From Nitrospira sp. (GTDB taxonomy: Bacteria > Nitrospirota > Nitrospiria > Nitrospirales > Nitrospiraceae): DNA of 16,009 nucleotides. The translations under genes were made by a program, and so were the position numbers. Position 1 is the first letter of the stretch; every line of letters starts with the position of its first letter. The notes under the pieces were generated by a model. It searched no databases, had not been told where the DNA came from, and saw only the letters and a program-made list of their open reading frames with translations. The stretch spans positions 30,054 to 46,062 of the forward strand of contig JABMDE010000081.1 in NCBI GenBank assembly GCA_015904055.1, given 5' to 3'. This document shows positions 1 through 15,714 of the stretch, piece by piece.

Positions 1-1280
1 GGCGTAATCTGCTGCAGCGCCGGTTCGAGTGATTGAAGCCCGGCGGGGAGAAAATGCAGCACGTAGGCGACGATCAAGACGACCGCCGTACCATAAAAGA
101 ACGGCAGCAGCTTAAGGCACAGCACTAAGACGGCCAGGGCCGCAACCGGCCCGGGGAGCACATACCCAGCATAGGCTGCCTGCAGGCAGCCCAGATTGAG
201 CCATGTCGGTTTCCGGCTCGCGAGATAGGCCAGTGGAAGGCCGATCAAGACTCCTGCCGTAGCGGCAAGGGCTGAAAGGAATGCGCTATTCCAGACAAAG
301 CCGACGAAGCGGGTATCCAAAATTGCCAGCGCTTCTGGAGACAGGCTCCATTGCACGAGCAAGTAGAAAGGAATACCGAAGGCCGCGCCGAGGATGGCGG
401 AAAGATATGCGGTAAAGGCCGTAGTCTTGAGCCAGCTGCAGTCGATACGCAGTGGCGCACGGTAGCGGCCTGTCGTTTGATAGAATCGGCTCTTGTGGCG
501 AAACCAACGCTCGGTTAGCAAGAAGACCAAGGCGAGCACTACCAGCAGGATGCTCAGAATGCTGGCAGCGGCGTTGTCCGATCGGCCGGTCATTTGCTGA
601 AAGACGGCATAGGTCAGCGTCTGGTAGCGCAAGAGAGAGACCGCGCCAAAATCGGAAACCACGTAGAGAATTACCAATGCCGTTCCCGCGACGATTGAAG
701 GGCGAAGCAGTGGCAGGGTTATGCAGAGCATCGTGCGTACGCGCGATGCGCCGCATGTGCGGGCCACTTCTTCGAACGACACGTTTAAACTCAAGAGCGC
801 ACTGCGGGTAAGGAGATACACAAACGGGAAGGTATCAAGCGCCATCACCAGCGTGGCGCCCCAGAAACTCTGCGGCGAGAAGATTCTGGCCTGAGGCCCG
901 GCGAAGGTTTGCCAGAGGTGCTCCACTGGCCCGCCGAATCCCAACAGATAGTTGTACACGTAAGCCAACACATAGGTTGGCATTGCCAGTGGCAGCACGA
1001 GGGCGATTTCCCAGAGCCGACGCCCATGAAAATCAAATCGTGTGACCACCCAGGCAGTTGAGACCCCTAACAGGAGGGTTAGAACGGCCACGGTTCCAGC
1101 CAAGGCTACAGTATTGGTCAACAGTTCGGGGATGCGCGTAGCCCACAGGCGTTGCCACACCGCAAGATCGGCTGACATGGCCAGCCCGGTGACATACCCC
1201 AGCGGTAGAAGAATGAGGACAGCGCTGCCCAGCACGGCCAACTGGAGGGGGAGTGCAGCATGGAGCCGTAGATTGGTCAC
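1..1280 (-). CDS. Ferric-iron ABC transporter permease (FbpB/SfuB/FutB type), 3' end outside window
   Basis: Inner-membrane permease that would move Fe3+ delivered by the adjacent binding protein. I translated the minus strand from a GTG at 1280 and found one open frame of 426 codons with no stop to the window edge; the family is usually about 500-560 residues, so the C-terminus is missing. The protein is very hydrophobic with many membrane spans. The first EAA loop, which contacts the ATPase, is at about residues 170-189 (EEVARTCGASRVRTMLCITL), followed by SDFGAVSLLRYQTLTYAVF, typical of iron permeases of this family. A second hydrophobic half starts near residue 250. The GTG lies 15 nt after the stop of the binding-protein gene and in the same frame, so translational coupling is likely; no clear Shine-Dalgarno is visible. 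The ATPase gene would be expected further left, outside the window. Confidence 0.85.
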   Translation of the reverse strand, partial: MTNLRLHAALPLQLAVLGSAVLILLPLGYVTGLAMSADLAVWQRLWATRIPELLTNTVALAGTVAVLTLLLGVSTAWVVTRFDFHGRRLWEIALVLPLAMPTYVLAYVYNYLLGFGGPVEHLWQTFAGPQARIFSPQSFWGATLVMALDTFPFVYLLTRSALLSLNVSFEEVARTCGASRVRTMLCITLPLLRPSIVAGTALVILYVVSDFGAVSLLRYQTLTYAVFQQMTGRSDNAAASILSILLVVLALVFLLTERWFRHKSRFYQTTGRYRAPLRIDCSWLKTTAFTAYLSAILGAAFGIPFYLLVQWSLSPEALAILDTRFVGFVWNSAFLSALAATAGVLIGLPLAYLASRKPTWLNLGCLQAAYAGYVLPGPVAALAVLVLCLKLLPFFYGTAVVLIVAYVLHFLPAGLQSLEPALQQIT

Positions 1281-1295
1281 AAGCAGGCTCGCGTA

Positions 1296-2375
1296 TTACC
1301 GGAGGCCTACTTGCTCGATGAGCAGCTGTGTTGGTTCACGCAACTCGGCCAGCTTGGTAAGTGGCACCAGGGCTGCGCGAAAGCTCTTGCGCTCGACAAG
1401 AGCAGGATCGGGCTTGACCTCCGGATGAAGCGGATATTCCTTGTCGAGATCGGCAAACATCTTCTGGCCTGCCTGCGCCACCAGAAATTCGACAAGCAGT
1501 TTGGCGCTGTCGAGCCGCGGGGTATGTTTGAGGATCCCAACGCCCGCCACATTCATGATCGCACCCATGCCACCCTCATGTTGGTCCGGCATCAAGACGG
1601 CGAGCGGCGCAGTCGGTTGTGCGGCGAGATGTCGATACACGTAATAATGATTCACGATGCCGATGGCGACCTGGCCTTTGGCCACGGCTTCCACGATTTG
1701 AGAGCTCTTCTGATAGACCTGGCTTCCGGCATTATCTCGAAGTCCCTGAAGAAAACTCTTCGTGCGTTCGTCTCCCACACTCGCGCGGATGACGGAGACC
1801 CCTGCCTGTAAGTACTCACTGCCGGAATTCGGAATGGCGATTTTGTCTTTCCATTCGGCATTGGCCAGATCGAGTAACGATTTGACTTGGTCAGGTTTCA
1901 CCAGGGTCGTGTTATAGACGATGATCCAGAAGCGTCCGGACAAGCCGATCCAGCTATTGTCTGCGGCGCGGAATTGCGAAGGGATTGCGCGGTCGATTTC
2001 CCGCATGTTCAGCGGACGAAGCAGACCCGCAGTACGGGCTATCTCCAGGCTGCCGGCGTCATTGGTAATGAACAGATCTGCCGGGCTGCGGTCTCCTTCT
2101 AGCTTCAACCGGTTGACCAGTTCGGTGGTGCCGGAGGAGAGCAGATCGATTTGAATGCCGGTCTTAGCGGTGAAGGAATCAAGCACCGGCTTAATCAGCC
2201 GTTCAGCGCGCCCTGAATAGACGGTCAACTTCTCCTCGGCCCATACCGGCGTTGTGGCATTCGGCCATGCGGAGAGGAACAGGCCGCAGAGCGCCAGGGC
2301 GACTGAGGCGAATTGGGGCCGGAGCGAACGAGAAGAAGAGAGCCGATGCTGTAGGATGTTCCACACAGGCCACAC
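1296..2375 (-). CDS. Periplasmic Fe3+-binding protein of ABC transporter (FbpA/FutA family)
   Basis: Captures ferric iron in the periplasm and hands it to the permease encoded just downstream. It has 359 residues from GTG 2375. A hydrophobic stretch at about 21-38 is followed by a likely signal-peptidase site after VWA (residue 46), with the mature protein beginning EEKLTVYSGR, a classic start for iron-binding proteins of this family. The paired tyrosines NHYYVY (Y244-Y245) match the metal-binding tyrosines of FbpA. The start is uncertain: an in-frame GTG at 2366 has a better placed AAAGG and would shorten the protein by 3 residues. It is the complete member of a pair; the copy at 4203-4876 is cut before the tyrosines. 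Genes run fur, binding protein, permease on one strand, so iron control by the adjacent Fur protein is an inference from position. Confidence 0.9.
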   Translation of the reverse strand: MWPVWNILQHRLSSSRSLRPQFASVALALCGLFLSAWPNATTPVWAEEKLTVYSGRAERLIKPVLDSFTAKTGIQIDLLSSGTTELVNRLKLEGDRSPADLFITNDAGSLEIARTAGLLRPLNMREIDRAIPSQFRAADNSWIGLSGRFWIIVYNTTLVKPDQVKSLLDLANAEWKDKIAIPNSGSEYLQAGVSVIRASVGDERTKSFLQGLRDNAGSQVYQKSSQIVEAVAKGQVAIGIVNHYYVYRHLAAQPTAPLAVLMPDQHEGGMGAIMNVAGVGILKHTPRLDSAKLLVEFLVAQAGQKMFADLDKEYPLHPEVKPDPALVERKSFRAALVPLTKLAELREPTQLLIEQVGLR

Positions 2376-2383
2376 CTTTCATT

Positions 2384-2402
2384 AAATTGAAATTGATAAA
2401 TC
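2384..2402. promoter_or_regulatory. Possible Fur-type operator upstream of iron-binding protein gene
   Basis: AT-rich stretch with two AATTGA units followed by TAAATC, just in front of the binding-protein start and next to a fur gene. The same segment is kept at 4885-4903 with one base changed. It resembles a degenerate array of NATWAT hexamers but is not a good match to the 19-bp consensus. Position and base composition are the only support. Confidence 0.25.
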
Positions 2403-2436
2403 GTCTCAAAAAGAATACCAAAAAAACAGGCGGGGG

Positions 2437-2868
2437 TCAATGACGACAGCGAGAACAGAGGCCATAGAGTTCGAGACGGTGAGTTTTGATCGTGAACCCA
2501 TTTTGTGTGGCCACCTCTTCCTGAAGCCGTTCGATGTCGCAGTTTTCAAACTCTACGATCTTTCCGCAGTCTGTGCAGATGAGATGGTCGTGATGGCCTT
2601 TATGGGAGACATTGTCGTACTGGGTCTGCGTGCCGAAGTGCCGGGCCTGCGCCAGTCCGGCTTCGCAAAAGAGATTGAGCGTGCGGTAGATTGTGGCCAG
2701 CCCCAAATGCGGATCTTTTTTCGCCAGCTGGTGATACATCGCCTCCGCGGTGATGTGCTCTTGCTTGAGAAAGGCATCAAGAATCAGCTCCCGTTGGCGG
2801 GTGCATTTCAGCTGATGTTTTCCGAGGTGCTCTTTCAGAGCCGTAATTTCTTTTTGATGTTTCGACAT
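2437..2868 (-). CDS. fur: Fur-family metal-responsive repressor (copy 1)
   Basis: Ferric-uptake-regulator family protein of 143 residues, a dimeric winged-helix repressor that uses metal as co-repressor. The N-terminal winged helix includes GLATIYRTLNLF (about 56-67). The dimerisation half has HHDHLICTDC (92-101) and a C-terminal CSRC (138-141), giving the two CxxC zinc pairs of the family. I chose ATG 2868 rather than the upstream ATG 2901, because in the second copy the equivalent extension contains a stop codon; an AGGAG lies 13 nt before the ATG, longer than usual spacing. It faces away from the small protein gene at 3014, sharing a 145-bp control region, and is followed after 61 bp by the iron-binding protein gene, so iron homeostasis is the likely job. 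PerR or Zur roles cannot be excluded. Confidence 0.9.
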   Translation of the reverse strand: MSKHQKEITALKEHLGKHQLKCTRQRELILDAFLKQEHITAEAMYHQLAKKDPHLGLATIYRTLNLFCEAGLAQARHFGTQTQYDNVSHKGHHDHLICTDCGKIVEFENCDIERLQEEVATQNGFTIKTHRLELYGLCSRCRH

Positions 2869-2952
2869 GGTGCCAGCCGAACTCCTGTTGAGACGAGCCA
2901 TTAAAGACGAAACACGCTATAAGGGTCAAGGGCATAGGGCGGGACAACAGGT

Positions 2953-2981
2953 TTGACGATCCCTGATCGCCTATTTATAGT
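2953..2981 (+). promoter_or_regulatory. Sigma70-type promoter for the small protein gene (copy 1)
   Basis: TTGACG (2953-2958), exactly 17 bp, then TATAGT (2976-2981), placed 32 bp before the ATG at 3014. Both hexamers and the spacing are preserved in the second copy at 5455-5483, although the spacer differs in several bases, which supports function. Confidence 0.65.
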
Positions 2982-3013
2982 GAGGACCCGTATCTTGCTA
3001 TTAGGACGACGGC

Positions 3014-3610
3014 ATGAGAACACCGAACCAGATTACCGTTGATCGTGCGCTCCTCTCCTATGTACTGCATCTGGCGGAGCCCTACGGTTTATTGAGCGAT
3101 GTCAAACTGCAGCAGTTGTGCTTTCTGTGCGAACTCCAAACATTCGGCAAAGGATTCAAGGGGTTGCACTTTGAGTTTTTCAGGTTCGCCTATGGCGCGT
3201 TCAGTAAAGATCTTGATAACGATCTCACCTCGCTCCGCCGGAAGGGACGGATCGAGAACTTCACCTTGTCCGACCAGGCCAAGGATGAGGTGATTCCGCT
3301 ACTGTTGACGTCGATCGAAGGGGTGGAGATCAATGAGAAGATTAAAGAGATCATTGATGCTGTCGTCGCGGTCTATGGGTCACAGGACAGTGGTGCGATT
3401 ACCTATTCTGTCGAGGCGGTGGAGCTGAGCACGCCGCAGCAACCGGAATTCAAAATTCCGATTCGGGACATTACCTTCCATACCACGCTCCTTGTGCCCG
3501 ATCGGATCGACGTGCAGGCTGAATTCACCAGTTCCCCTGCATTGCTGGCCAAGCTGAATGTGGCGATGGGCTATGACAGCAAGGCAGTGTCGAGCATTCA
3601 GAGCTGGTAG
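3014..3610 (+). CDS. Panacea/SocA-like (DUF4065-type) small protein, copy 1
   Basis: A soluble 198-residue protein with no signal peptide or membrane span. Residues about 8-75 (LLSYVLHLAEPYGLLSDVKLQQLCFLCELQ..., then FEFFRFAYGAFSKDLDNDLTSL) have the pattern of the Panacea/DUF4065 fold: a KLQ-LCF helix, then a YG-F/PxSxxL segment and a winged-helix-like region ending RRKGRIENFTLSDQAK. Panacea proteins are best known as antitoxin-like partners, but no toxin gene is adjacent, so no such role is claimed. The start ATG 3014 has AGGA 7 nt upstream and a promoter at 2953-2981. Its 3' end overlaps the convergent M32 peptidase gene by 13 bp (3598-3610). A second, mostly synonymously different copy is at 5516-6112. 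The family call is from pattern recognition and is moderate. Confidence 0.75.
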   Translation: MRTPNQITVDRALLSYVLHLAEPYGLLSDVKLQQLCFLCELQTFGKGFKGLHFEFFRFAYGAFSKDLDNDLTSLRRKGRIENFTLSDQAKDEVIPLLLTSIEGVEINEKIKEIIDAVVAVYGSQDSGAITYSVEAVELSTPQQPEFKIPIRDITFHTTLLVPDRIDVQAEFTSSPALLAKLNVAMGYDSKAVSSIQSW

Positions 3611-4202
3611 ATCTCGCCGTATTTCTTTTCCACATACAATAGAAATGGATCAGGACTGATCGTCGCGCCGGTGACGCGTTGGGCCAGATGGTCCGGGGTA
3701 AACATGCGGCCCCAGCGGTGAATTTTCTGCTCCAACCAGCGGCGTAATTCCAGTAATTGCCCCGCGGCGATGGCCTCTTCAAGACGGGGAATCTCCAGTG
3801 TGGCTTGCTCGAAGAATTGCACAGAATAAAGATTGCCCAGCGTATAGGTTGGAAAGTAGCCGAAGGCGCCGAACGACCAATGGACGTCCTGCAGCACGCC
3901 TTCCGCATCTGATGTCGGCGTGATCCCCAAATACTCCTCCATCTTTTGGTTCCACAAGGCGGGCAAGTCTTCGGGCTGCACTTTGCCTTCAATGAGGTCC
4001 TGTTCGATTTCGAAGCGCAGCATGATGTGGAGGTTATAGGTCAGCTCGTCGGCTTCCACGCGGATGAACGAGGGTTTCACGCAGTTGATCGCGGCGTAAA
4101 ATTGCTCGACGTCCACGCCCTGCAGCTGGTGATGGAAGGTCTGTTGCAGAATCGGATAGAAGAAGCGCCAAAAGGCGCGGGAGCGCCCGACGCAATTTTC
4201 CC
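3598..4202 (-). pseudogene. M32 carboxypeptidase, C-terminal fragment (residues ~311-510)
   Basis: The last 200 residues of an M32 (Taq-type) metallocarboxypeptidase, ending in YVEKKYGEIYQL like the complete copy at 6100-7632. Homology stops abruptly at 4202, after which the sequence is the 5' part of an iron-binding protein gene read in another frame. The fragment lacks the HEGGH zinc motif and has no start of its own; the open frame extends upstream to 4362 only through out-of-frame sequence. The missing N-terminal part (residues 1-320) is found at 8582-9541, with the two parts sharing 32 bp. Joined, they would give a 510-residue protein in frame. Protein-level conservation with the intact copy is still high, so the break looks recent or artefactual. 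Confidence 0.85.
4171..4202 (+). repeat. 32-bp direct repeat, left flank of inserted block
   Basis: Bases 4171-4202 (begins AAAGGCGCGG, ends ATTTTCCC) recur without mismatch at 8582-8613. Both belong to the M32 gene, and the flanking bases differ outside the 32 bp. The equivalent stretch in the intact M32 copy (6673-6704) differs at one base (T for C). Confidence 0.9.
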
Positions 4203-4876
4203 GAGCTTTTCTGATAGACCTGGCTTCCGGCATTATCTCGAAGTCCCTGGAGAAAACTCTTTGTCCGTTCGTCTCCCACACTCGCGCGGATGACGGAGAC
4301 CCCCGCCTGTAAGTACTCACTGCCGGAATTCGGAATCGCGATCTTGTCTTTCCATTCGGCATTGGCCAGATCGAGCAACGACTTGACCTGATCCGGTTTC
4401 ACCAGGGTTGTATTATAGACGATGATCCAGAAGCGTCCGGACAAGCCGATCCAGCTATTGTCCACGGCGCGGAATTGCGAAGGTATTGCTCGGTCGATTT
4501 CCCGCATGTTCAGCGGGCGAAGAAGTCCAGCAGTACGGGCTATCTCCAGGCTGCCGGCGTCATTAGTAATGAACAGATCAGCCGGGCTGCGGTCACCTTC
4601 TATTTTCAACCGGTTGACCAGTTCGGTGGTGCCGGAGGAGAGCAGGTCGATTTGAATACCGGTCTTAGCAGTGAAGGAATCGAGCACCGGTTTGATCAGC
4701 CGTTCGGCGCGCCCTGAATAGACGGTCAACTTCTCATCGGCCCATGCTGGTGTTGCGGCATTCGGCCATGCGGAGAGGAACAGGCCGCAGAACGCCAGGG
4801 CGATTGAGGCGAATCGGAGCCGGAGTGAACGAGAAGAAGAGAGCCGATGCTGTAGGATGTTCCACACAGGCCACAC
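4203..4876 (-). pseudogene. Fe3+-binding protein gene, 5' fragment (residues 1-224)
   Basis: Second copy of the iron-binding protein gene, cut after SQVYQKSS (residue 224 of 359) at the junction with the M32 fragment. The frame continues to 4034 through out-of-frame peptidase sequence. It keeps the signal peptide and N-lobe but lacks the tyrosine pair at 244-245 and the whole C-terminal part, so it should not bind iron normally. Compared with 1702-2375 the alignment is gap-free; I count about nine amino-acid changes, most of them in the signal peptide. The start (GTG 4876) and upstream region match copy 1. Confidence 0.85.
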
Positions 4877-4884
4877 CTTTCATT

Positions 4885-4903
4885 GAATTGAAATTGATAA
4901 ATC
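4885..4903. promoter_or_regulatory. Possible Fur-type operator, second copy
   Basis: Counterpart of 2384-2402, upstream of the truncated binding-protein gene, with the two AATTGA units and TAAATC retained and one base changed at its left edge. Same weak support: position beside fur and AT-rich hexamer pattern. Confidence 0.2.
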
Positions 4904-4937
4904 GTCTCAAAAAGAATACCAAAAAAACAGGCGGAGG

Positions 4938-5369
4938 TCAATGACGACAGCGAGAACAGAGGCCGTAGAGTTCCAGGCGGTGGGTTTTGATGGTGAAGCC
5001 GTTGCGAGCAGCGACCTCCTCCTGAAGACGTTCAATGTCGCAGTTTTCAAACTCCACGATCTTTCCGCAGTCTGTGCAGATGAGATGGTCGTGATGGCCT
5101 TTATGGGAGATGTTGTCGTATTGGGTCTGCGTGCCGAAGTGCCGGGCCTGTGCCAGGCCGGCTTCACAAAAGAGATTGAGCGTGCGGTAGATCGTTGCTA
5201 GTCCCAAATGCGGATCTTTTTTCGCTAGCTGGTGATACATCTCCTCCGCGGTGATGTGTTCTTGCTTGAGAAAGGCATCAAGAATCAGCTCGCGTTGACG
5301 AGTGCATTTCAGCTGATGTTTCCCGAGATGCTCTTTCAGAGCCGTAATTTCTTTTTGATGCTTCGGCAT
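4938..5369 (-). CDS. fur: Fur-family metal-responsive repressor (copy 2)
   Basis: Complete 143-residue Fur-family protein, nearly identical to the one at 2437-2868. I see five replacements: S2P, A43E, V87I, T121A and Q122R. All zinc cysteines (98, 101, 138, 141), the HHDH cluster and the recognition helix are kept, so it should be functional. The upstream ATG used by the long form of copy 1 is here followed by an in-frame TAG, which fixes the start at 5369. The gene it would lead into, the second iron-binding protein gene, is truncated. Two such regulators could form heterodimers or simply double the dose; if the block is an assembly artefact there is only one gene per cell. Confidence 0.88.
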   Translation of the reverse strand: MPKHQKEITALKEHLGKHQLKCTRQRELILDAFLKQEHITAEEMYHQLAKKDPHLGLATIYRTLNLFCEAGLAQARHFGTQTQYDNISHKGHHDHLICTDCGKIVEFENCDIERLQEEVAARNGFTIKTHRLELYGLCSRCRH

Positions 5370-5454
5370 GGCGCCAGCCTAACTCCTGTTGAGAATAGCC
5401 ATTAAAGACGAAACAAGCTATACGGGTCAAGGGCATAGGGCGGGACAAATAGGT

Positions 5455-5483
5455 TTGACGGTCACCGATCGCCTATTTATAGT
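5455..5483 (+). promoter_or_regulatory. Sigma70-type promoter for the small protein gene (copy 2)
   Basis: TTGACG (5455-5460), 17-bp spacer, TATAGT (5478-5483), 32 bp before ATG 5516. Same hexamers and spacing as at 2953-2981. Confidence 0.65.
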
Positions 5484-5515
5484 AAGAATCCGTATTTTGC
5501 TATCAGGATAACGGC

Positions 5516-6112
5516 ATGAGAACACCGAACCAGATTACCGTTGATCGTGTGCTCCTCTCCTATGTAGTGCATCTGGCGGAACCGTATGGTTTATTGAGCG
5601 ATGTCAAACTGCAGCAGCTGTGCTTTCTATGCGAACTCCAAACCTTCGGCAAAGGATTCAAGGGGATGCACTTTGAGTTCTTCCGGTTCGCCTATGGCGC
5701 GTTCAGTAAAGATCTTGATAATGACCTCACTTCCCTTCGTCGAAAGGGGCGGATCGAGAATTTCACTTTGTCCGACCAGGCCAAGGAGGAGGTGATTCCA
5801 CTATTGTTGACGTCGATCGAAGGGGTGGAGACCAACGAGAAGATCAAAGAGATCATTGATGCCGTTGTAGCTGTCTATGGACCGCAGGACAGCGGTGCGA
5901 TCACCTATTCTGTCGAGGCGGTGGAGCTGAGCACTCCGCAGCAGCCAGAATTCAAAATCCCGATTCGGGATATTACATTTCACACCACGCTCCTTGTGCC
6001 CGATCGGATCGATGTGCAGGCGGAATTCGCCTGTTCCCCTGCGGTGCTGGCCAAGCTGAATGCGGCGATGGGCTATGACAGCAAGGCGGTGTCGAGCATT
6101 CAGAGCTGGTAG
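5516..6112 (+). CDS. Panacea/SocA-like (DUF4065-type) small protein, copy 2
   Basis: Complete 198-residue paralogue (or strain variant) of the protein at 3014-3610, with the same start, length, promoter and 3' overlap. Most nucleotide differences are silent; replacements include A13V, L18V and L51M plus a few near residues 173-182. The KLQQLCFLCEL helix and the FEFFRFAYGAFSKDLDNDL segment are kept, so both copies appear to have been under selection for the protein. The last 13 bp overlap the end of the intact M32 gene on the opposite strand (6100-6112), so the two transcripts must be complementary at their 3' ends. No partner toxin is adjacent; function unknown. Confidence 0.75.
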   Translation: MRTPNQITVDRVLLSYVVHLAEPYGLLSDVKLQQLCFLCELQTFGKGFKGMHFEFFRFAYGAFSKDLDNDLTSLRRKGRIENFTLSDQAKEEVIPLLLTSIEGVETNEKIKEIIDAVVAVYGPQDSGAITYSVEAVELSTPQQPEFKIPIRDITFHTTLLVPDRIDVQAEFACSPAVLAKLNAAMGYDSKAVSSIQSW

Positions 6113-7632
6113 ATCTCGCCGTATTTCTTTTCCACATACGATAAAAATGGATCGGGACTGATCGTCGCGCCGGTGACGCGTCGGGCCAGACGGTCCGGAG
6201 TAAACATACGACCCCAGCGGTGAATCTTCTGTTCCAACCAGCGGCGTAATTCCAGTAATTGCCCCGCGGCGATGCCCTCTTCAAGACGGGGGATCTCCAG
6301 TTTGGCTTGCTCGAAGAATTGCACAGAGTACAGGTTACCCAGCGTATAAGTTGGAAAGTAGCCGAAGGCACCGAACGACCAATGAACGTCTTGCAGCACG
6401 CCTTCCGCATCTGAAGTCGGCGTGATCCCCAGATACTCTTTCATTTTTTGGTTCCATAAGGCGGGCAAGTCTTCGGGCTGCACCGTGCCTCCAATGAGGT
6501 CCTGTTCGATTTCGAATCGCAGCATGATGTGGAGGTTATAGGTCAGCTCGTCGGCTTCCACGCGGATGAACGAGGGTTTGACGCAGTTGATCACGGCATA
6601 AAATTTCTCGACGTCCACGCTCTGCAGCTGGTGGTGGAAGGTCTGTTGCAGAATCGGATAGAAGAAGCGCCAAAAGGCGCGGGAGCGTCCGACGCAATTT
6701 TCCCACAGCCGGGATTGACTCTCATGAATGCCGAGTGAGACCGAGTCGCCGAGCGGTGTGCCGAAATACCGCTGGTCGAGCCCCTGATCGTAGAGGCCAT
6801 GCCCGCCTTCATGTATGCAGCTGAACAGACAGGATTGGAGTTCGCGCTCATACACGCGAGTGGTCACCCGCACGTCAGTCGGATGAAACGAGGTCGTGAA
6901 TGGATGGGCCGAAAGATCCAATCGGCCGCGCGCGAAGTCATAACCCATAGCAGTGAGGACCAGGCGCCCGAACTCCAGTTGCCGGGTTTGATCATACGAG
7001 TGCCGGAGGATACTGTCGTCGATCCGAACGTGGCTCTCAGTAATTCGCTTCAGCAGCGGGACGAGGCGGGCTTTCAGTTGGGCGAAAATGGGTTGAAGCG
7101 CGGCGATCGTGGAGCCCGGTTCATAGACGTCCAGGAGCGCGTTATAGGGTGAATCGGTATAGCCGAGATATTGAGCCTCTTGGCGTTTGAGCGACAGAAT
7201 CGTGCGGAGGTTTGGGAGAAACTTGGCGAATGTACTCTGTTCCTTTGCTTCTGCCCAGACCTGCTGCGCGAGCGAGCATTCCCGGCTTAACGTGACCACA
7301 AAATCAGATGGGAGCTTCTTGGCCCGGCTGAAGTCCCGCCAGACTTCTCGCAACAGCGATCGAGAGGGCTCGTCCCACAGATCGCCGGGCTGATCGAAGG
7401 CCTGCCCTGTCACGGGATTGACCCATTGGGACAAGAGCGTTTCAATGTCCGGGGACACCAGCTTCTGATGGGCCAGCCCCTGAAGGACGGCGATTTGTTC
7501 CGCCCGTGCCGCTCCTCCGCCGGCCGGCATATAGGTCTCTTGATCCCATGACAGCACCGAGGCGGCGCTATTGATACGCTGGATTTCAAGAAGTCTAGTT
7601 GTGAGCGGCTCTAGTGTGGTGATGGTCTTCAA
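6100..7632 (-). CDS. M32 family zinc metallocarboxypeptidase (Taq carboxypeptidase type), intact copy
   Basis: Cytosolic exopeptidase that removes C-terminal residues from peptides. It has 510 residues, the usual length for M32. The zinc motif HEGGH is at 274-278 (E275 catalytic) and the downstream IHESQSRLWEN supplies the third ligand Glu (E304), both diagnostic of the family. The N-terminal region has the usual SVLSWDQETYMPAGG segment (25-39). The start is TTG 7632, preceded by GAGGAG about 7 nt upstream; the other copy also uses TTG with a strong AGGAGG, so the rare start is well supported. It is divergent from the O-methyltransferase gene at 7729 and overlaps the convergent small protein gene by 13 bp. 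It is the only uninterrupted M32 gene in the window. Confidence 0.93.
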   Translation of the reverse strand: MKTITTLEPLTTRLLEIQRINSAASVLSWDQETYMPAGGGAARAEQIAVLQGLAHQKLVSPDIETLLSQWVNPVTGQAFDQPGDLWDEPSRSLLREVWRDFSRAKKLPSDFVVTLSRECSLAQQVWAEAKEQSTFAKFLPNLRTILSLKRQEAQYLGYTDSPYNALLDVYEPGSTIAALQPIFAQLKARLVPLLKRITESHVRIDDSILRHSYDQTRQLEFGRLVLTAMGYDFARGRLDLSAHPFTTSFHPTDVRVTTRVYERELQSCLFSCIHEGGHGLYDQGLDQRYFGTPLGDSVSLGIHESQSRLWENCVGRSRAFWRFFYPILQQTFHHQLQSVDVEKFYAVINCVKPSFIRVEADELTYNLHIMLRFEIEQDLIGGTVQPEDLPALWNQKMKEYLGITPTSDAEGVLQDVHWSFGAFGYFPTYTLGNLYSVQFFEQAKLEIPRLEEGIAAGQLLELRRWLEQKIHRWGRMFTPDRLARRVTGATISPDPFLSYVEKKYGEIYQL

Positions 7633-7728
7633 GCAATATCTCCTCGTGGCTATGCTACAATTCTTGGCGCTGCGATCACCAGTCTACGCAACCGCATCGA
7701 TGTTTTTCAAACCTGTAAAGGAACTGTC

Positions 7729-8378
7729 ATGAAATCACTCGTGCGTCCTGACATCGAAGTCTACGCGCAGGCACATTCGACACCGGAATCGTCGGTGTGT
7801 CGGGCGCTCAGAGAAGAGACGCAGCGGACGATGGAGTATGCGCAAATGGTGGTCGGCCCCTTGGAAGGGGCCTTTCTCAAAATGATGACGCAGTTGGTGG
7901 GCGCCAAGCGGGTGCTCGAAGTCGGGATGTTTACCGGCTACAGCGCCTTGTGCTTTGCAGAAGCGCTGCCGGGAGATGGGACGGTCGTTACGTGTGAAAT
8001 CGATGAAGTGTCTGCGGCACTGGCTCGACGCTATATTTCGCAGGCGCCATTCGGGAGCAAGATCAGCATTCGCATGGGGCCGGCCCTGGACACGATGGGC
8101 ACGCTCACCAGTCCATTCCATTCGACGTGATCTTTATCGATGCCGATAAGGCCAACTATGTGAATTACTACCGACGTGCGCTCGATCTGCTTTCGCCAAA
8201 CGGTGTGATCTTGATCGACAACGTGCTCTGGAGTGGCGAGGTGCTCAAACAGCCGCCGTCTGACGATCAGACGGCTGTCATCCAGGAATTGAACCGGACG
8301 GTGGCGAACGATACCCGTGTGACCGCTGTGCTGGTGACGATTCGTGATGGGGTGTTGGTGGTGAGACGGAAGACGTGA
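7729..8378 (+). pseudogene. Class I SAM-dependent O-methyltransferase (family 3), frameshifted copy
   Basis: Homologue of the intact gene at 9662-10306. The first frame (7729-8130) encodes the N-terminal half with the SAM-binding VLEVGMFTGYSALCFAEALP and then hits TGA; the rest continues in another frame from about 8124 (IFIDADKANYVNYY ... LIDNVLWSGEV). The cause is visible: CATTC is present twice in a row at 8114-8123, where one copy would restore PFDVIFIDAD. The 5-bp gain is the size expected of slippage or a small duplication. A GTG at 8127 overlapping the stop might allow a separate C-terminal peptide, but that would lack the SAM site. ATG 7729 has AAGGA 6 nt upstream. Confidence 0.85.
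8114..8123 (+). repeat. 5-bp tandem duplication (CATTC x2) causing frameshift
   Basis: CATTCCATTC lies inside the methyltransferase coding region; the intact copy has a single unit-length stretch here. Deleting one unit restores the reading frame. Confidence 0.8.
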
Positions 8379-8487
8379 CCTGTGACTATTGATGGGTGAG
8401 TAGACTTCATTGTCAGTAGGCTGCCCCTCCTGTTTCATAACCCCAACTCACGACGATCGATATTGAGACCCTCCTGCGGAAGGCGAA

Positions 8488-8516
8488 TTGACCGAATTAT
8501 GGCAGAGGGATACACT
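8488..8516 (+). promoter_or_regulatory. Promoter-like pair upstream of the truncated TIR gene copy
   Basis: TTGACC (8488-8493), exactly 17 bp, then TACACT (8511-8516), 42 bp before the ATG of the TIR fragment. In front of the intact TIR-FGE gene the same two hexamers are present (10415-10420 and 10422-10427) but 16 bp between them are missing. Confidence 0.4.
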
Positions 8517-8557
8517 CTCGGCCAAAGAATCGAGGGACAGCCGAGCCTTTTGTTGCC

Positions 8558-8581
8558 ATGAGCAAGATACTGATCTCCTAT
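8558..8581 (+). pseudogene. TIR-FGE gene, first eight codons only
   Basis: ATG plus seven codons (MSKILISY) identical to the start of the intact TIR-FGE gene at 10469, then an abrupt switch at 8582 to antisense M32 sequence with no shared bases at the joint. The frame runs on for about 20 unrelated codons before a stop. It marks the right end of the inserted block. Confidence 0.85.
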
Positions 8582-8613
8582 AAAGGCGCGGGAGCGCCCG
8601 ACGCAATTTTCCC
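8582..8613 (+). repeat. 32-bp direct repeat, right flank of inserted block
   Basis: Exact partner of 4171-4202. It is the C-terminal edge of the N-terminal M32 fragment (codons about 310-320). Confidence 0.9.
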
Positions 8614-9541
8614 ACAGGCGGGATTGGCTCTCGTGAATGCCGAGTGAGACCGAGTCGCCGAGCGGTGTGCCGAAATACCGTTGGTCGAGCCCCTGGTCGT
8701 AGAGGCCGTGCCCGCCTTCATGAATGCAGCTGAACAGACAGGATTGGAGCTCGCGCTCATACACGCGAGTGGTCACCCGCACGTCAGTCGGATGAAACGA
8801 GGTTGTGAATGGATGGGCCGAAAGATCCAATCGGCCGCGCTCGAAGTCATACCCCATGGCAGTCAGGATCAGGCGTCCGAACTCCAGTTGCCGGGTTTGA
8901 TCATACGAGTGCCGGAGGATACTGTCGTCAATCCGAACGTGGCTCTCAGTAATTCGCTTCAGCAGCGGGACGAGGCGGGCTTTCAGTTGGGCGAAAATGG
9001 GTTGAAGCGCAGCGATCGTGGAGCCCGGTTCATAGACATCCAGGAGTGCGTTATAGGGCGAATCGGTATAGCCGAGATACTGAGCCTCTTGGCGTTTGAG
9101 CGACAGAATCGTACGGAGGTTCGGGAGAAACCTGGCGAATGCGCTCTGCTCCTTTGCTTCGGCCCAGACCTGCTGCGCGAGCGAACATTCCCGGCTTAAC
9201 GTGACCACAAAATCAGATGGGAGCTTCTTGGCCCGGCTGAAGTCCCGCCAGACTTCCCGCAACAGCGACCGCGAAGGCTCGTCCCACAGATCTCCGGGCT
9301 GATCAGAGGCCTGCCCCGTCGCAGGATCGACCCATTGTAACAAGAGCTTTTCAATGTCTGGGGACACCAGCTTCTGATGGGCCAGCCCCTGAAGGACGGC
9401 GATTTGTTCTGCTCGCGCGGCTCCTCCGCCGGCCGGCATATAGGTTTCTTGATCCCAGGACAGCACGGAGGCGGCGCTATTGATGCGTTGGATTTCAAGA
9501 AGTCTGGTTGTGAGCGGCTCTAGCATGGCCAATGTCTTCAA
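8582..9541 (-). pseudogene. M32 carboxypeptidase, N-terminal fragment (residues 1-320)
   Basis: The first 320 residues of an M32 carboxypeptidase, nearly identical to the intact protein and including HEGGH and IHESQSRLWEN, cut after ENCVGRSRAF. The reading frame continues to 8435 through 48 unrelated codons, antisense to the TIR leader. TTG 9541 is preceded by AGGAGG at ideal spacing, so a stable truncated product could still be made. It lacks about 190 C-terminal residues and is unlikely to fold as a normal M32 enzyme. It complements the fragment at 3598-4202 exactly, with 32 bp in common. Confidence 0.85.
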
Positions 9542-9661
9542 GCGAGGCCTCCTATTTCATCTGAGACTAAGACTGCGCATCACGCTTCACGCGAAGGTGC
9601 TGTATGATGGCGCTGCAGTGTACGCAACCCCGGTCGCATTTTTCAAACCAGCGAGGCCTGT

Positions 9662-10306
9662 ATGAAACACCTGGTGTCCCCTGAAATCGAAGCCTATGCC
9701 CAGGCACATTCGACGCCGGAATCGTCGGTGTGTCGGGCGCTCAGAGAAGAGACGCAGCGGACGATGGAGCATGCGCAAATGGTGGTCGGTTCCTTGGAAG
9801 GGGCTTTTCTCAAAATGATGACGCAGTTGGTGGGCGCCAAGCGGGTGCTCGAAGTCGGGATGTTTACCGGCTATAGCGCACTGTGCTTTGCCGAAGCGCT
9901 GCCAGCGGACGGGATGGTGGTCACGTGTGAAATCGATGAAAAGTCTGCTGCACTGGCTCGACGCTACATTTCGCAGGCCCCATTCGGGAACAAGATCAGC
10001 ATTTGCATGGGGCCGGCCCTCGACACGATGAGTACGCTCACCGGTCCGTTCGATCTGATCTTTATCGACGCGGATAAAGTGAATTATCTGAATTACTATC
10101 GGCGTGCCCTTGAGCTGCTCTCTCCGAACGGTGTGATCTTGATCGACAATGTGCTCTGGAGCGGTGAGGTGCTCAAACAGCCGCCGCCCGACGACCAGAC
10201 GGCTGTCATCCAGGAGTTGAACCGGACGGTGGCGGACGATTCTCGTGTGACCGCTGTGCTGGTCACGGTTCGAGACGGGGTGTTGGTGGTGAGATGGAAG
10301 ACGTGA
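9662..10306 (+). CDS. Class I SAM-dependent O-methyltransferase (Methyltransf_3 / caffeoyl-CoA OMT-like), intact
   Basis: Transfers a methyl group from S-adenosylmethionine to a hydroxyl (catechol-type) acceptor; the true substrate is unknown. The 214 residues match the 200-230 typical of bacterial family members. Motifs: SAM-binding VLEVGMFTGYSALCFAEALP (62-81), acidic VTCEID (87-92), the metal and substrate loop IFIDADKVNY (133-142; D136, D138) and LIDNVLWSGEV (160-170; D162, N163). ATG 9662 has GAGG a few bases upstream. It is divergent from the N-terminal M32 fragment and is followed after 162 bp by the TIR-FGE gene on the same strand. The second copy at 7729-8378 is frameshifted, so this is the only functional version in the window. 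Confidence 0.9.
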   Translation: MKHLVSPEIEAYAQAHSTPESSVCRALREETQRTMEHAQMVVGSLEGAFLKMMTQLVGAKRVLEVGMFTGYSALCFAEALPADGMVVTCEIDEKSAALARRYISQAPFGNKISICMGPALDTMSTLTGPFDLIFIDADKVNYLNYYRRALELLSPNGVILIDNVLWSGEVLKQPPPDDQTAVIQELNRTVADDSRVTAVLVTVRDGVLVVRWKT

Positions 10307-10468
10307 CGTGTGGATAGTAATGGGTGAATAGGCTTCATTGTCAGTAGGCTGCCCCCTGTTTCATAACCCCAATCTCACGACAATCGATATTGAGACCCTC
10401 CTGCGGAAAGCGAATTGACGATACACTCTCGGCCAAAGAATCGAGGGACAGCCGAGCCTTTTGTTGCC

Positions 10469-11683
10469 ATGAGCAAGATACTGATCTCCTATCGTCGAGA
10501 GGATAGCGCCGATGTCACGGGGCGGATCTATGACCGGCTTGTCCAGCAGTTTGAGCGAGAGGCTGTGTTCAAAGATGTGGATTCTATCCCCCTGGGTGTC
10601 GATTTTCGGATCTATCTGGATGAACAGGTGGCCAAGTGCGACGTGTTTCTTGCGGTGATCGGGCGGGATTGGATGAAAGCAGGAGGCCGGAAGGGCAAGT
10701 CCAGGCTTGATGACCCAGGAGATTACGTTCGGATTGAAGTCGAGTCGGCGTTAAAGCGGCACATCCCAGTGATTCCAGTGCTTGTTGGAGGGGCCTCAAT
10801 CCCGTTCGTTGAGCGGCTTCCGGCCAGCATTCAAGGTTTGTCTTACCGAAACGGTATCGCGGTGCGGCCAGATCCAGATTTTCACCGGGACATGGATCGG
10901 TTGATCGAGTATCTCAAGCAACAGGTTCGCGGTCTAAACGAGCCTCATGCGGAACCGGACACCCACGCCAAGCCTGTTCTCAAGGAGACAAAGTCAGTCT
11001 CCCCTGCCACACCAATAGACATGGTGAAGGTGATGAAAGGGCCGTTCCTGTATGGCGACGAGAAAATTCGTGAGACGATCGACCATGACTATTGGATCGA
11101 TCAGTACCCTGTCACGAACGAGAAGTATCGAGCGTTCATCTCGGCAGGTGGCTACGGGAATCAGGCCTACTGGTCACCTGAAGGGTGGAAGTGGAAGACC
11201 AAATACAACATAACAGCTCCGGAATATTGGAATGACAGCACATGGAACCAAGCAGATCATCCAGTTGTGGGAGTTAGCTACTTCGAAGCAGAGACCTATG
11301 CCAAATGGGCAGGAAAGCGTCTTCCTGCCGAACAAGAGTGGGAAAAAGCGGCGCGAGGCGAGGATGGGCGCGAGTATCCATGGGGGGAGGAGTTCGATAA
11401 GGCTCGATGTAACAGTTCTGAATCTGGATTTAAGCAGAGCACCCCAGTGACTCAGTATCCCAAGGGAGTCAGTCCCTATGGGTGCTACGACATGGCGGGA
11501 AACGTGTGGGAGTGGTGTGTGAGTTGGTCTGACAAAAGCCAGGGCGAGCGTGTGGTCCGTGGCGGTTCCTGTTTCAACGCAAACACATCGGGGTACTTGC
11601 GTGTGTCGTTTCGGGGTAGGAACCACGTCATCCACCGGCTCAACTACATTGGCTTCCGTCTCGTCCAGGACCTTGAGCCGTAA
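10469..11683 (+). CDS. TIR domain fused to FGE/SUMF1-like (C-type-lectin fold) domain
   Basis: A 404-residue soluble protein. Residues 2-150 form a bacterial TIR domain (ILISYRREDSADVTGRIYDRL, VFKDVDSIPLGVDFRIYL, DVFLAVIGRDW, YVRIEVESAL); E90 or E92 sits where NAD-cleaving TIRs carry the catalytic Glu. After a linker (about 151-182), residues 183-400 form an FGE-sulfatase domain (DYWIDQYPVTNEKYRAF, HPVVGVSYFEAETYAKWAGKRLPAEQEWEKAARG, YPWG, YDMAGNVWEW, RVVRGGS, YIGFRLV). The paired active-site cysteines of true formylglycine-generating enzymes are absent (only C368 lies near), so a binding role is likelier than catalysis. I chose ATG 10469, because the second copy shares this ATG; an in-frame TTG at 10415 would add 18 residues, and the Shine-Dalgarno is weak. 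The last 40 codons resemble a DGR variable repeat. Confidence 0.88.
   Translation: MSKILISYRREDSADVTGRIYDRLVQQFEREAVFKDVDSIPLGVDFRIYLDEQVAKCDVFLAVIGRDWMKAGGRKGKSRLDDPGDYVRIEVESALKRHIPVIPVLVGGASIPFVERLPASIQGLSYRNGIAVRPDPDFHRDMDRLIEYLKQQVRGLNEPHAEPDTHAKPVLKETKSVSPATPIDMVKVMKGPFLYGDEKIRETIDHDYWIDQYPVTNEKYRAFISAGGYGNQAYWSPEGWKWKTKYNITAPEYWNDSTWNQADHPVVGVSYFEAETYAKWAGKRLPAEQEWEKAARGEDGREYPWGEEFDKARCNSSESGFKQSTPVTQYPKGVSPYGCYDMAGNVWEWCVSWSDKSQGERVVRGGSCFNANTSGYLRVSFRGRNHVIHRLNYIGFRLVQDLEP
11568..11670 (+). other. Candidate DGR variable-repeat-like 3' end of the TIR-FGE gene
   Basis: After RVVRGGS, the C-terminal codons include TTC, AAC, TAC, AAC, CAC, GTC, ATC, CAC, CTC, AAC, TAC before ATT GGC TTC CGT CTC GTC. 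This run of NNC codons at positions that are asparagine (AAC) in diversity-generating retroelement templates, ending in IGFRLV, is the pattern left by adenine mutagenesis. FGE domains in general also end in GFR, and no template repeat or reverse transcriptase is in the window, so this is a suggestion only. Confidence 0.35.
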
Positions 11684-11723
11684 CCATTTGCTCTGTATCT
11701 GAATTCTTTCTTGTGAGGAAACT

Positions 11724-11810
11724 ATGTTGAAGAAGCCGACGGATCATCAGAAGTTGCGGGCTGAGATGGGCAAACTCATTGAGGCGGATCGGCGGCGGAA
11801 TACTCCTTGA
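11724..11810 (+). CDS. Small ORF of 28 residues after the TIR-FGE gene
   Basis: Encodes MLKKPTDHQKLRAEMGKLIE followed by eight residues ending RRRNTP. ATG 11724 is preceded by GTGAGGAAACT, a good Shine-Dalgarno at normal spacing, and the gene lies 40 bp after the TIR-FGE stop on the same strand. The peptide is highly charged and probably a single helix. I do not recognise it; it may be the remains of a longer gene, since its frame stops just before the EamA gene. The ribosome site is its only real support. Confidence 0.35.
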   Translation: MLKKPTDHQKLRAEMGKLIEADRRRNTP

Positions 11811-11837
11811 CGAGATAAAGAAACAGCGGTATGTCCC

Positions 11838-12746
11838 ATGCCCATGACGCCACCATCTTCGACATTGGCCTATGGGTCGGTCGTGCTCGCCGCTGTGCTT
11901 TGGGGCGGGTCGATTGTTGCACAGAAGATGGCACTGGGGTCGTTTTCTGCGGTCGAAGCGTCGGTGTTGCGCGATATCGGTGGATTGACGATTCTCCTGG
12001 CCACCTGGTGGTGGCAGGAAGGCGGCGTCATCAAGATCGGCAAGCCGGATCTCCGTCTGTTGGGCCTGCTTGGGCTCGGCGTGCTGGGGAATCATCTGTT
12101 GATTATGATGGGACTTAAATACGTGAGTGGAGCGGTCGGGGGAGTCATTATCGGATCGAGCCCGGTGGTGACCGCGCTACTCTCGGCCATGTTGATCCGC
12201 GATGTCCCGCTCCGTGCCGTGTGGGTCGGGGCCGGTCTGTCCTTTGCCGGTGTCGGATTGGTCTCCGTGGCTGGGTTCCAGGCGGCCGGCGAACAGCCGT
12301 TACTGGGCAGTACGCTGGTCTTTCTGGGGGTCGTTAGTTGGGCGCTGTATAGCATCGGCAGCCGTGCAGTCATGGAACGTGTCTCGGCGTTGACCGTCAA
12401 CTGGACTACGCTGTTGGTCGCGACTGCCTTGCAGGTCCCGTTGCTCTGGACCGACCGGAAGATGTTGGATGCAGGCGCCGCGTCGGTGACCATGTCCGAT
12501 TGGCTGGCGTTGGGCTATCTCGTGGTTTTTGCCACGGCTGTGGCGCAACAGGCGTGGTTATTTGGTGTAAAAGGGGTCGGTCCGTCTCGGGCCTCAGTCT
12601 TGGGGAACCTCACGCCGGTAGCGGCCATTGGACTGTCTGCGCTGATTCTGAACGAATCGGTTGGTCTCATCGAAGTCATCGGCATCGGCCTTATTCTGGC
12701 CGGCGTCTGGGTAGTGAACCGCCAAACAGTTGAGTCAACGAACTAA
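11838..12746 (+). CDS. DMT superfamily transporter, EamA type
   Basis: Inner-membrane drug/metabolite exporter of 302 residues, the normal length, with about ten membrane spans in two EamA repeats (about 10-145 and 155-295). The first repeat starts AYGSVVLAAVLWGGSIVAQKMAL, with the WG pair common in this family, and each repeat ends in a glycine-rich span (SFAGVGLVSVAG; IGLILAGVWVVNRQ). The second repeat carries GPSRASVLGNLTPVAAIGLSALILNE, the best conserved EamA segment. The substrate cannot be told. ATG 11838 is chosen, with a second in-frame ATG at 11844; the ribosome site is weak. It is on the same strand as the TIR-FGE gene, but nothing ties the two functionally. A repeat begins immediately after the stop. 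Confidence 0.9.
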   Translation: MPMTPPSSTLAYGSVVLAAVLWGGSIVAQKMALGSFSAVEASVLRDIGGLTILLATWWWQEGGVIKIGKPDLRLLGLLGLGVLGNHLLIMMGLKYVSGAVGGVIIGSSPVVTALLSAMLIRDVPLRAVWVGAGLSFAGVGLVSVAGFQAAGEQPLLGSTLVFLGVVSWALYSIGSRAVMERVSALTVNWTTLLVATALQVPLLWTDRKMLDAGAASVTMSDWLALGYLVVFATAVAQQAWLFGVKGVGPSRASVLGNLTPVAAIGLSALILNESVGLIEVIGIGLILAGVWVVNRQTVESTN

Positions 12747-12980
12747 CAGGATGCTGAAAAATTCCGCCAGCGGCGTTCTCGCATCGCTCAGAGGCTCAAC
12801 GTAATAAGCCCAACTGACACAAGAAACCTATCCGCTCGCATCTGATCGAAACGAGCGGTTCAAGCGAAGCTTGGTATGTACCTCCTCGCCTCTTCGCTCG
12901 CTCCGGCCTTGCTTGTGGAACAGGGCGTCTTGGCGCACCGGGGTGGGCGGGTGAGACCATTGATCTTTTTGAGCATCCTG
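12747..12980. repeat. MITE-like intergenic repeat with terminal inverted repeats
   Basis: Left end CAGGATGCTGAAAAA (12747-12761) and right end TTTTTGAGCATCCTG (12966-12980) are inverted copies with 14 of 15 matches. The interior holds CCGCCAGCGGCGTTCTCGC and CTCCTCGCCTCTTCGCTCGC but no coding gene. It starts directly after the EamA stop codon. I recall this end sequence as a frequent intergenic repeat in Nitrospira genomes, but could not check. It could fold into a long hairpin and end transcription. The 212 bp that follow, up to 13193, hold no gene or clear site. Confidence 0.65.
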
Positions 12981-13192
12981 ATGCGATCGAATTTGTAGTG
13001 CTATCTGTAAGATGGCAGCGATTTTTTCCGTAGCCTGCTAAGCTCCTGTAATTATCGTATTCTCCCTGCTCTCGATCATGGCCCCCGTTTGGAGTATCAT
13101 GCACATCCGGGGAATGCTGGGCCTTCTGTCGCTTCGTGGTCAACGTCGTCGTCGGATACTAGACGGTCGAGTTTTTCAGGTCGCGAACAGTC

Positions 13193-14650: not shown

Positions 14651-15300
14651 GCCACCTTCGGGTTGTGATCGTAGAAGATCATGCGTTGGTCAGGGCCGGT
14701 ATGCGGGCCCTTCTGCAAAAACTCGATGGCATCGAAGTCGTCTCGGACGTGGGAGATGGGTTGGAGGCCATCAAGGCGGTGCACACAGACGCGCCCGATC
14801 TTGTGCTGATGGATATTGCTATGCCGGGCTTAAACGGACTCGATGCAACATTCCGGATCGTGAGGGAGTCGCCGACTACGCGTGTGATTCTGGTCTCGAT
14901 GCATGCCAATGAAGAATATCTCCGGCAAGCGCTGCACGCTGGTGCGTCGGGCTATCTCTTGAAGGGCGCAGAATTATCCGAACTTGAGTTGGCCATCAGG
15001 ACGGTGGGAAGAGGGGAGACGTACCTGACTCCGGCGGTCGCGAAATATGCCATTGAAGCGTATCGGGAGCATCCCGAAGGGCCCTCCGGACCGTTGGCCA
15101 AGCTCAGCATGCGGCAGCGTGAAATTCTGCAGCTCATTGCGGAAGGGCATACCACAAAAGATATTGCCCAGCGTCTCAACTTGAGCGTCAAAACGGTTGA
15201 AACACACCGAAGCCAATTGATGGAACGGCTCGAAATTCATGATGTGCCCGGTCTCGTTCGCTTCGCGATCGGTGTCGGATTGGTCCAGCCCTACTCCTAG
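14647..15300 (+). CDS. NarL/FixJ-family response regulator
   Basis: DNA-binding regulator of 217 residues. The receiver domain (about 4-120) has E10 and D11, the phosphorylated D56 in LVLMDIAMPG, S84 in ILVSMHA, and K106 in GYLLKGAE. The C-terminal LuxR-type helix-turn-helix (about 150-205) reads LSMRQREILQLIAEGHTTKDIAQRLNLSVKTVETHRSQLMERL, close to the family consensus. Its ATG overlaps the kinase stop (ATGA at 14647-14650), so the two are translationally coupled and form one two-component system. Targets are not visible in the window; no transport or metabolic gene is co-transcribed with it. No strong terminator follows; 15301-15730 has repeats and one doubtful ORF. Confidence 0.95.
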   Translation: MSHLRVVIVEDHALVRAGMRALLQKLDGIEVVSDVGDGLEAIKAVHTDAPDLVLMDIAMPGLNGLDATFRIVRESPTTRVILVSMHANEEYLRQALHAGASGYLLKGAELSELELAIRTVGRGETYLTPAVAKYAIEAYREHPEGPSGPLAKLSMRQREILQLIAEGHTTKDIAQRLNLSVKTVETHRSQLMERLEIHDVPGLVRFAIGVGLVQPYS

Positions 15301-15393
15301 CCCGCACGGCTCATAACGGGTCGTTGCCTCTTCAACAGGCTCAGGGTTCCGGGCACGGTTGAGGGGCGAAACAAATTCCATGGAATGCTTCGG

Positions 15394-15469
15394 GTTTCGA
15401 GCCCTGAGTTTCGAGTATCAGGGGCGTGTTTCCTGGCAACACGAAACATGAAGACAGAAACTTGAAACG
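15394..15469. repeat. Degenerate heptad-phased GAAAC/GTTTC inverted repeats
   Basis: On the right, GAAAC-type units begin at 15443, 15450 (as GAAGA), 15457 and 15464, an exact 7-bp step. On the left, GTTTC begins at 15394, 15408 and 15428, in the opposite orientation. The two sets could pair as an imperfect hairpin after the response-regulator gene. Function unknown; the sequence lies inside the doubtful minus-strand ORF 15418-15714. Confidence 0.45.
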
Positions 15470-15714
15470 CTATTCTCCAGAGCGCTGCATCGGCGATTGC
15501 CGTAGAAACGCTCATGAATTGTCCAGGTTTCTGCGCAAAAGTTTAAATGCATCATGCCTTCCTGAACTCCCTGTAACTTCTCAGTGATTTCCCGGCTTGC
15601 TTTCAGGGTTTTCCCGATAGGGGGGGCATCGTCTTTTATGAGATGGTGGACTTGGATACGGGCCGCAAATTGGTGCCGTACGTATTCATGAATAGGCTCA
15701 CGCTGGGTGGTCAT
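15418..15714 (-). CDS. Doubtful hypothetical protein, 98 residues
   Basis: An open frame starting MTTQREPIHEYVRHQFAARI, with no recognised domain. The first 60 residues have ordinary protein composition, but no Shine-Dalgarno precedes the ATG; the preceding bases are the complement of the ribosome site of the divergent gene at 15731, leaving only 16 bp between the two starts. The C-terminal part runs through the heptad-repeat region. It may be a real small gene or a chance frame; I lean to chance. Confidence 0.25.
   Translation of the reverse strand: MTTQREPIHEYVRHQFAARIQVHHLIKDDAPPIGKTLKASREITEKLQGVQEGMMHLNFCAETWTIHERFYGNRRCSALENSVSSFCLHVSCCQETRP

What the first reader, a model, noticed from the sequence alone, without database searches (positions are those of the whole stretch)
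4203..8581. A diverged second copy of a six-gene locus sits inside an M32 peptidase gene
Bases 4203-6704 are a second version of 1702-4202, and 6673-8581 a second version of 8582-10492; each pair abuts exactly. The block starts mid-gene in the iron-binding protein gene, ends eight codons into the TIR gene, and splits one M32 gene into 3598-4202 and 8582-9541. The broken pieces still differ from their partners mainly at silent sites (binding-protein fragment: about nine changes in 224 residues, mostly in the signal peptide), so selection acted until recently and the junctions are young. Two independent old tandem duplications would need both breakpoints to fall within 32 bp of each other in M32; one insertion of sister-strain DNA, or an assembly chimera of two strains, explains both at once.
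Basis: partly seen in the sequence, partly recalled or inferred. Interest (0 to 1): 0.75.

Follow-up and report, generated by a model that had tools for sequence, protein, structure and literature searches.

The report
Sister-strain gene block, probably assembly chimera
A stretch of Nitrospira DNA carries a second, 8-11% different version of a small gene neighbourhood wedged into the middle of a peptidase gene; at least part of it comes from a related lineage, and the join is more likely a mix-up of two co-occurring strains during assembly than a real insertion.

Summary
4203-6704 matches 1702-4202 (92.4%) and 6673-8581 matches 8582-10492 (88.6%); each pair abuts exactly. A 32-bp A-type stretch (4171-4202 = 8582-8613) brackets the block, so the record reads A[1..4202] - B - A[8582..16009]. 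Nearest relatives are Nitrospira. The 30 relatives inspected have the locus once, and no match crossed either join in 79 congeneric genomes. B is not a duplicate born in A's own lineage over the left pair: a tree with A and B together is rejected (p-AU 0.001). The right pair is undecided. Broken gene pieces show no decay, so the joins are recent or artificial. Nested placement at its own homologous site, two blunt joins at one point and a block end 73 bp into perfect A/B identity fit a sister-strain contig put into an assembly gap (0.65). Against: no N at the joins; a frameshift in B's O-methyltransferase, weakened because some relatives also lack or break that gene; and a database cluster of 11 proteins whose shown member carries the join. 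No reads were available; a real insertion (0.27) stays open.

The parts
1..4202 (.). A-type sequence, left arm
   Evidence: collinear with relatives; 93.5% to L090 (G021)
3..1280 (-). ABC permease (BPD_transp_1), cut by the window edge
1296..2375 (-). A solute-binding protein, 359 aa, whole (iron type is inferred from the Fur neighbour)
2437..2901 (-). A Fur-family regulator, whole
3014..3610 (+). A 198-aa protein, no Pfam match at E 0.001, whole
3598..4202 (-). A M32 carboxypeptidase, C-terminal piece (about 201 codons)
   Evidence: listed in the protein database as a 211-aa ORF, P0210
4171..4202 (.). 32-bp stretch, first copy
   Evidence: identical to 8582-8613
4203..8581 (.). B block (second version of the locus)
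4203..4876 (-). B solute-binding protein, first 224 codons only
4938..5369 (-). B Fur, whole
5516..6112 (+). B 198-aa protein, whole
6100..7632 (-). B M32 carboxypeptidase, 510 aa, whole
7729..8378 (+). B O-methyltransferase, frame broken by a 5-bp tandem duplication
8509..8581 (.). last 73 bp of B, identical to A 10420-10492, includes 8 codons of the TIR gene
8582..8613 (.). 32-bp stretch, second copy
8582..9541 (-). A M32 carboxypeptidase, N-terminal piece (320 codons)
9662..10306 (+). A O-methyltransferase, whole
10469..11683 (+). A TIR_2 + FGE-sulfatase domain protein (the ORF tool starts it at TTG 10415; ATG at 10469)

Best explanation
The record joins two co-occurring Nitrospira lineages. 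Strain A's assembly breaks in its M32 gene, leaving two ends that overlap by 32 bp; a 4379-bp piece of strain B, covering the same locus, was put into the gap. Shown: two versions 8-11% apart, blunt joins, the 32-bp overlap, no such join in the relatives searched, and a separate ancestry of B over the left pair. Inferred: that the join happened in assembly rather than in a cell, and that both A arms are one strain.
For: The block sits exactly at its own homologous place, as scaffolding by read pairs would put it. In 79 congeneric genomes 74 match the first join's query and 71 the second's, and no listed match crosses a join by more than 4 bases. A+B as a clade is rejected over 1702-4202 (31 log-likelihood units, p-AU 0.001); informative sites there run 38 for A+G021|B+G001 against 10 and 9. 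Both joins meet at one point of A with a 32-bp overlap and no visible microhomology. B stops 73 bp into perfect identity with A, the second longest of the identical runs over 4439 alignment columns; 9 columns end a run of 73 or more, 8 of them in one run of 80 in M32. A graph assembler would lose strain B there. Broken pieces keep open frames and dN/dS of 0.07-0.10. A review names chimeric contigs from related (sub-)species as a known fault (PMC7299287, passages seen); coexisting Nitrospira species with low recombination are reported (PMC8751384, passages seen).
Against: No N marks either join. B's left end shows no long A/B identity (first mismatch at base 6), so only one end of B looks like a graph branch. 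The two lengths, 32 and 73, do not point to one k-mer size. B's O-methyltransferase is frameshifted, which would suit a spare copy; 50 of 52 relatives with a match keep it in one open frame, but one of them (L027) has an internal stop, and L006, L023 and L028 have genes from both sides of the locus without it, so a strain B with a broken copy is not far-fetched. The database cluster of the window's own truncated M32 (P0210, whose first residues come from B) stands for 11 member sequences on 1 listed contig of 46,062 bp; if members other than the window carried the join, that would favour a real structure, and I could not see them.
Confidence: 0.65

Rival explanations
1. Real recent insertion: a linear fragment of a sister lineage (or of its recombinant with A) was captured in one event at a staggered break in A's M32 gene; fill-in of the break made the 32-bp repeat. 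B's whole M32 now stands in for the split one, Fur and the 198-aa gene are doubled, and B's spare O-methyltransferase has begun to decay.
For: One event explains both joins and the 32-bp repeat. Each of the six doubled or split genes keeps at least one whole copy, and the one whole-length gene that is damaged is a spare. No N at the joins. Ku, needed for bacterial end joining (recalled), has a match in 10 of 79 congeners, G001, nearest to B on the left pair, among them. The 11-member cluster P0210 is compatible with it.
Against: End joining needs no homology, so landing inside the fragment's own homologous region would be a coincidence unless pairing held the fragment there. 69 of 79 genomes show no Ku match, G021, nearest to A, among them (several are small and probably incomplete). 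A 32-bp duplication is long for a filled-in break (recalled). The 73-bp identical end needs a further coincidence or a hidden crossover.
Confidence: 0.27
2. Two separate tandem duplications inside strain A's own lineage, later diverged.
For: Each pair is head to tail and abutting. Over the right pair A and B fall together, weakly (56/93), and 5 of 11 informative sites near the join agree.
Against: A+B rejected over the left pair (p-AU 0.001); single copy in the 30 relatives inspected; 8-11% divergence without decay of the broken pieces; both breakpoints within 32 bp.
Confidence: 0.03
3. Unequal exchange during natural transformation with sister-strain DNA (merodiploid formation or homology-facilitated illegitimate recombination).
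For: B's last 73 bp equal A, as if a crossover lay there. Both processes are described in other bacteria (PMC3784515, passages; PMC3240628, start of abstract in a listing).
Against: As described in those texts each process uses a homologous exchange; here both visible joins are non-homologous. Published Nitrospira populations show low recombination (PMC8751384, passages).
Confidence: 0.05

Closest known systems
Chimeric metagenome contig from related strains
   Same: two versions of one locus in one record, not found in the other genomes searched, joins without a biological signature
   Different: the joins are abrupt and non-homologous and carry no N; strain switching in a graph is expected inside shared sequence (inference)
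Merodiploidy by transformation (Streptococcus pneumoniae, PMC3784515, passages seen)
   Same: two versions of one segment in one chromosome after uptake of homologous DNA
   Different: there a plain tandem duplication forms by unequal crossing-over at repeats; here the second copy is nested in the first, with two non-homologous joins
Homology-facilitated illegitimate recombination (PMC3240628, start of abstract seen)
   Same: linear related DNA with a non-homologous join
   Different: that process has one homologous and one illegitimate end; here both visible joins are illegitimate

Membership tests
Assembly chimera of two strains | two versions of one locus with separate ancestry | tested here: met
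   left pair: A+B clade rejected; the right pair does not resolve it
Assembly chimera of two strains | arrangement absent from independent genomes | tested here: met
   no crossing match in 79 congeners for either join, up to 8 or 9 candidates scored per genome; join patterns not in viral contigs. The other members of cluster P0210 could not be seen
Assembly chimera of two strains | no single read spans the joins; strain A reads run through M32 | not testable with these tools
   no reads, coverage or own genome held
Assembly chimera of two strains | block ends lie in sequence shared by the strains | tested here: inconclusive
   right end yes (73 bp), left end no (5 bp)
Tandem duplication within one lineage | the copies are each other's nearest relatives | tested here: not met
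   left pair: p-AU 0.001 against; right pair: together with weak support 56/93
Transposition or site-specific insertion | element-borne recombinase | tested here: not met
   no recombinase family among the ten proteins scanned: A copies, B's M32 and right-hand neighbours; B's remaining genes are homologues of these. The 32-bp direct repeat is present
Homology-facilitated illegitimate recombination | one homologous junction | tested here: inconclusive
   both visible joins are non-homologous; a hidden crossover in the 73-bp end cannot be excluded

The most novel reading that the evidence does not exclude
A real, recent, single-event capture of a sister-lineage fragment at its own homologous locus by non-homologous joining, with a 32-bp duplication of the break site: pairing brings the fragment in, end joining fastens it, and the result is a partly diploid bacterium whose M32 gene has been replaced by insertion rather than by recombination.
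Probability: 0.25. Interest if true: 0.5.

Novelty: not a real feature. Interest (0 to 1): 0.25.

Why it matters
If an artefact, it warns that abrupt strain chimeras without N can enter public contigs and yield false broken genes and false duplications (the window's truncated M32 ORF already stands in a protein database as P0210). If real, it would show homology-guided but non-homologous capture of sister-lineage DNA in an environmental bacterium, a route to partial diploidy that does not fit the recombination models compared here.

Tried and rejected
A breakpoint hot spot in M32. P0021, a 319-aa M32 piece from another record, leaves the M32 sequence after residue 310, at the border of the 32-bp stretch. 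The ends of the truncated proteins, mapped, are spread along the gene; some carry a tail that looks like adapter read-through (recalled), so I claim no hot spot. Two six- and five-residue motifs of the P0021 tail were not found in the loci then held.

A shared fusion protein elsewhere. For the fused M32 ORF 8435-9541, the best 120 of 7472 matches cover at most 87% of it, which is the M32 part (7999 candidates scored). For the C-terminal piece, P0210 is the only 100% match among the 120 listed of 4726. Rows beyond the lists, and the other members of each cluster, were not seen.

Relaxed selection on the broken pieces: not seen; dN/dS lies in the range of whole pairs.

Of 67 relatives' loci given, 52 have a match; 51 are near complete in one frame (at least 200 of 214 residues), of which L027 has an internal stop, and L005 is cut by the record's end. 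15 loci have no match, some because the record ends.

M32 in the family: matches in 153 of 175 genomes; G013, G023, G067, G071, G077 and G150 list two or three, several visibly partial, which I did not follow up, and not all matches were printed. In one search, 66 loci were compared but only the first 30 by number, and pieces of 200 bp or more, were printed and inspected.

Full report
What is there. The window reads A[1..4202], B[4203..8581], A[8582..16009]. B is a second version of the locus that surrounds its own insertion point: 4203-6704 pairs with 1702-4202 (92.4%) and 6673-8581 with 8582-10492 (88.6%). The two A arms overlap by exactly 32 bp (4171-4202 = 8582-8613), a stretch in which B differs by one base. 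The window holds no N, the joins are blunt, and I see no base shared by the parents there. The genes are an ABC permease, a solute-binding protein, a Fur regulator, a 198-aa protein without Pfam match, the M32 carboxypeptidase, an O-methyltransferase, a TIR/FGE-sulfatase protein, an EamA transporter, a PAS histidine kinase and a LuxR-type response regulator. A's binding protein is whole and B's is cut after 224 codons; A's M32 is split and B's is whole; Fur and the 198-aa gene are whole in both; A's O-methyltransferase is whole and B's is frameshifted by a 5-bp tandem duplication.

Where it comes from. B's M32 matches Nitrospira MAGs best (94% to L001). In the 30 loci printed the parts lie once each and in one order, as far as each contig reaches. 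The first join (query 4035-4500) was sought in 79 genomes of the genus of G001, the genome of L001: 74 match, none crossing the join by more than 4 bases. The second join (8432-8731): 71 of 79 match, none crossing. In both searches at most 8 or 9 candidates a genome were scored, and the genomes are of unstated completeness. M32 has a match in 153 of 175 genomes of the family. The window's own truncated M32 ORF is listed as P0210, 211 aa, on one contig of 46,062 bp, which I take for the source record; its cluster stands for 11 member sequences, which I could not see.

Ancestry of B. Over 1702-4202, sites informative for four sequences run 38 (A+G021|B+G001), 10 and 9. The tree puts B with G001 (97/95) and A with G021 (82/85), and holding A and B together costs 31 log-likelihood units, p-AU 0.001. 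Over the right pair the picture differs. In the first 503 bp the three splits have 5 (A+B), 3 and 3 sites; the M32 N-terminal tree leaves A, B, G001, G021 and G058 unresolved; with the O-methyltransferase included A and B fall together with weak support (56/93) and B+G001 is rejected at p 0.02. B is therefore mosaic, and at least its left part belongs to another lineage than A. I cannot show that the left and right A arms are one strain: the 32-bp stretch that they share is also found unchanged in G021 and G001.

Age of the joins. The broken pieces have no internal stops. dN/dS between A and B is 0.074 (binding-protein piece), 0.101 and 0.086 (M32 C- and N-terminal pieces), against 0.030 and 0.056 for the two genes whole in both. 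Values from 0.05 to 0.27 occur between whole A copies or pieces and relatives for the same stretches. There is no clear sign of decay: the joins are recent, or never existed in a cell.

Ends of B. B's last 73 bp equal A, whereas the eleven blocks of 73 columns before them carry 2 to 22 differences; of 4439 columns 9 end an identical run of 73 or more, 8 of these in one run of 80 inside M32. G058 differs from both at many of these positions, so the identity is not simple conservation. It lies at the start of the TIR gene, for which G001 shows no match beside its locus. A recent exchange of that gene between strains would make them identical from there on, and an assembler would lose strain B there; this is inference. 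B's left end shows no such feature (first mismatch at base 6).

Chimera or insertion. Two random chimeric joins would not be expected to meet within 32 bp, so one cause should explain both: a piece put into an assembly gap, or one insertion at a break. A random insertion would not pick the fragment's own homologous site, while scaffolding by read pairs would, and the 73-bp end fits too. Review passages name chimeric contigs from related (sub-)species (PMC7299287). For a real event speak the absence of N, the tidy outcome (each doubled or split gene keeps a whole copy), the frameshift in B's spare O-methyltransferase and possibly the 11-member cluster. The frameshift is weak evidence: of 51 relatives with a near-complete gene in one frame one (L027) has an internal stop, and L006, L023 and L028 have matches on both sides of the place without the gene. 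Ku has a match in 10 of 79 congeners, including G001 but not G021, so end joining is possible in some. Merodiploid formation (PMC3784515, passages) and homology-facilitated illegitimate recombination (PMC3240628, start of abstract) both use a homologous exchange, which is not visible here. I weigh the chimera at 0.65 and a real insertion at 0.27; reads would settle it.

Noticed in passing
P0021 (protein record, 319 aa): An M32 N-terminal piece from another record leaves the M32 sequence after residue 310, right at the border of the 32-bp stretch. A single case; ends of other truncated M32 proteins are spread.
   Followed up: partly
window 7729-8378: B's O-methyltransferase has a 5-bp tandem duplication that breaks the frame. 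The gene is near complete in 51 of 67 relatives' loci, one of them with a stop, and missing between matching flanks in L006, L023 and L028.
   Followed up: yes
window 10469-11683; L093, L092: The TIR/FGE-sulfatase gene is present in A and matched in G058 (L092), but G001 (L093) shows no match to it there: an accessory gene in this neighbourhood.
   Followed up: no
window 3014-3610 and 5516-6112: A 198-aa protein whole in both versions (dN/dS 0.056) has no Pfam match.
   Followed up: no
genus of G001: Ku is patchy in the genus: matches in 10 of 79 genomes.
   Followed up: no
P0210 (protein record, 211 aa): The window's own truncated M32 ORF heads a cluster of 11 member sequences on 1 listed contig of 46,062 bp; whether other members carry the join is unknown.
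   Followed up: no
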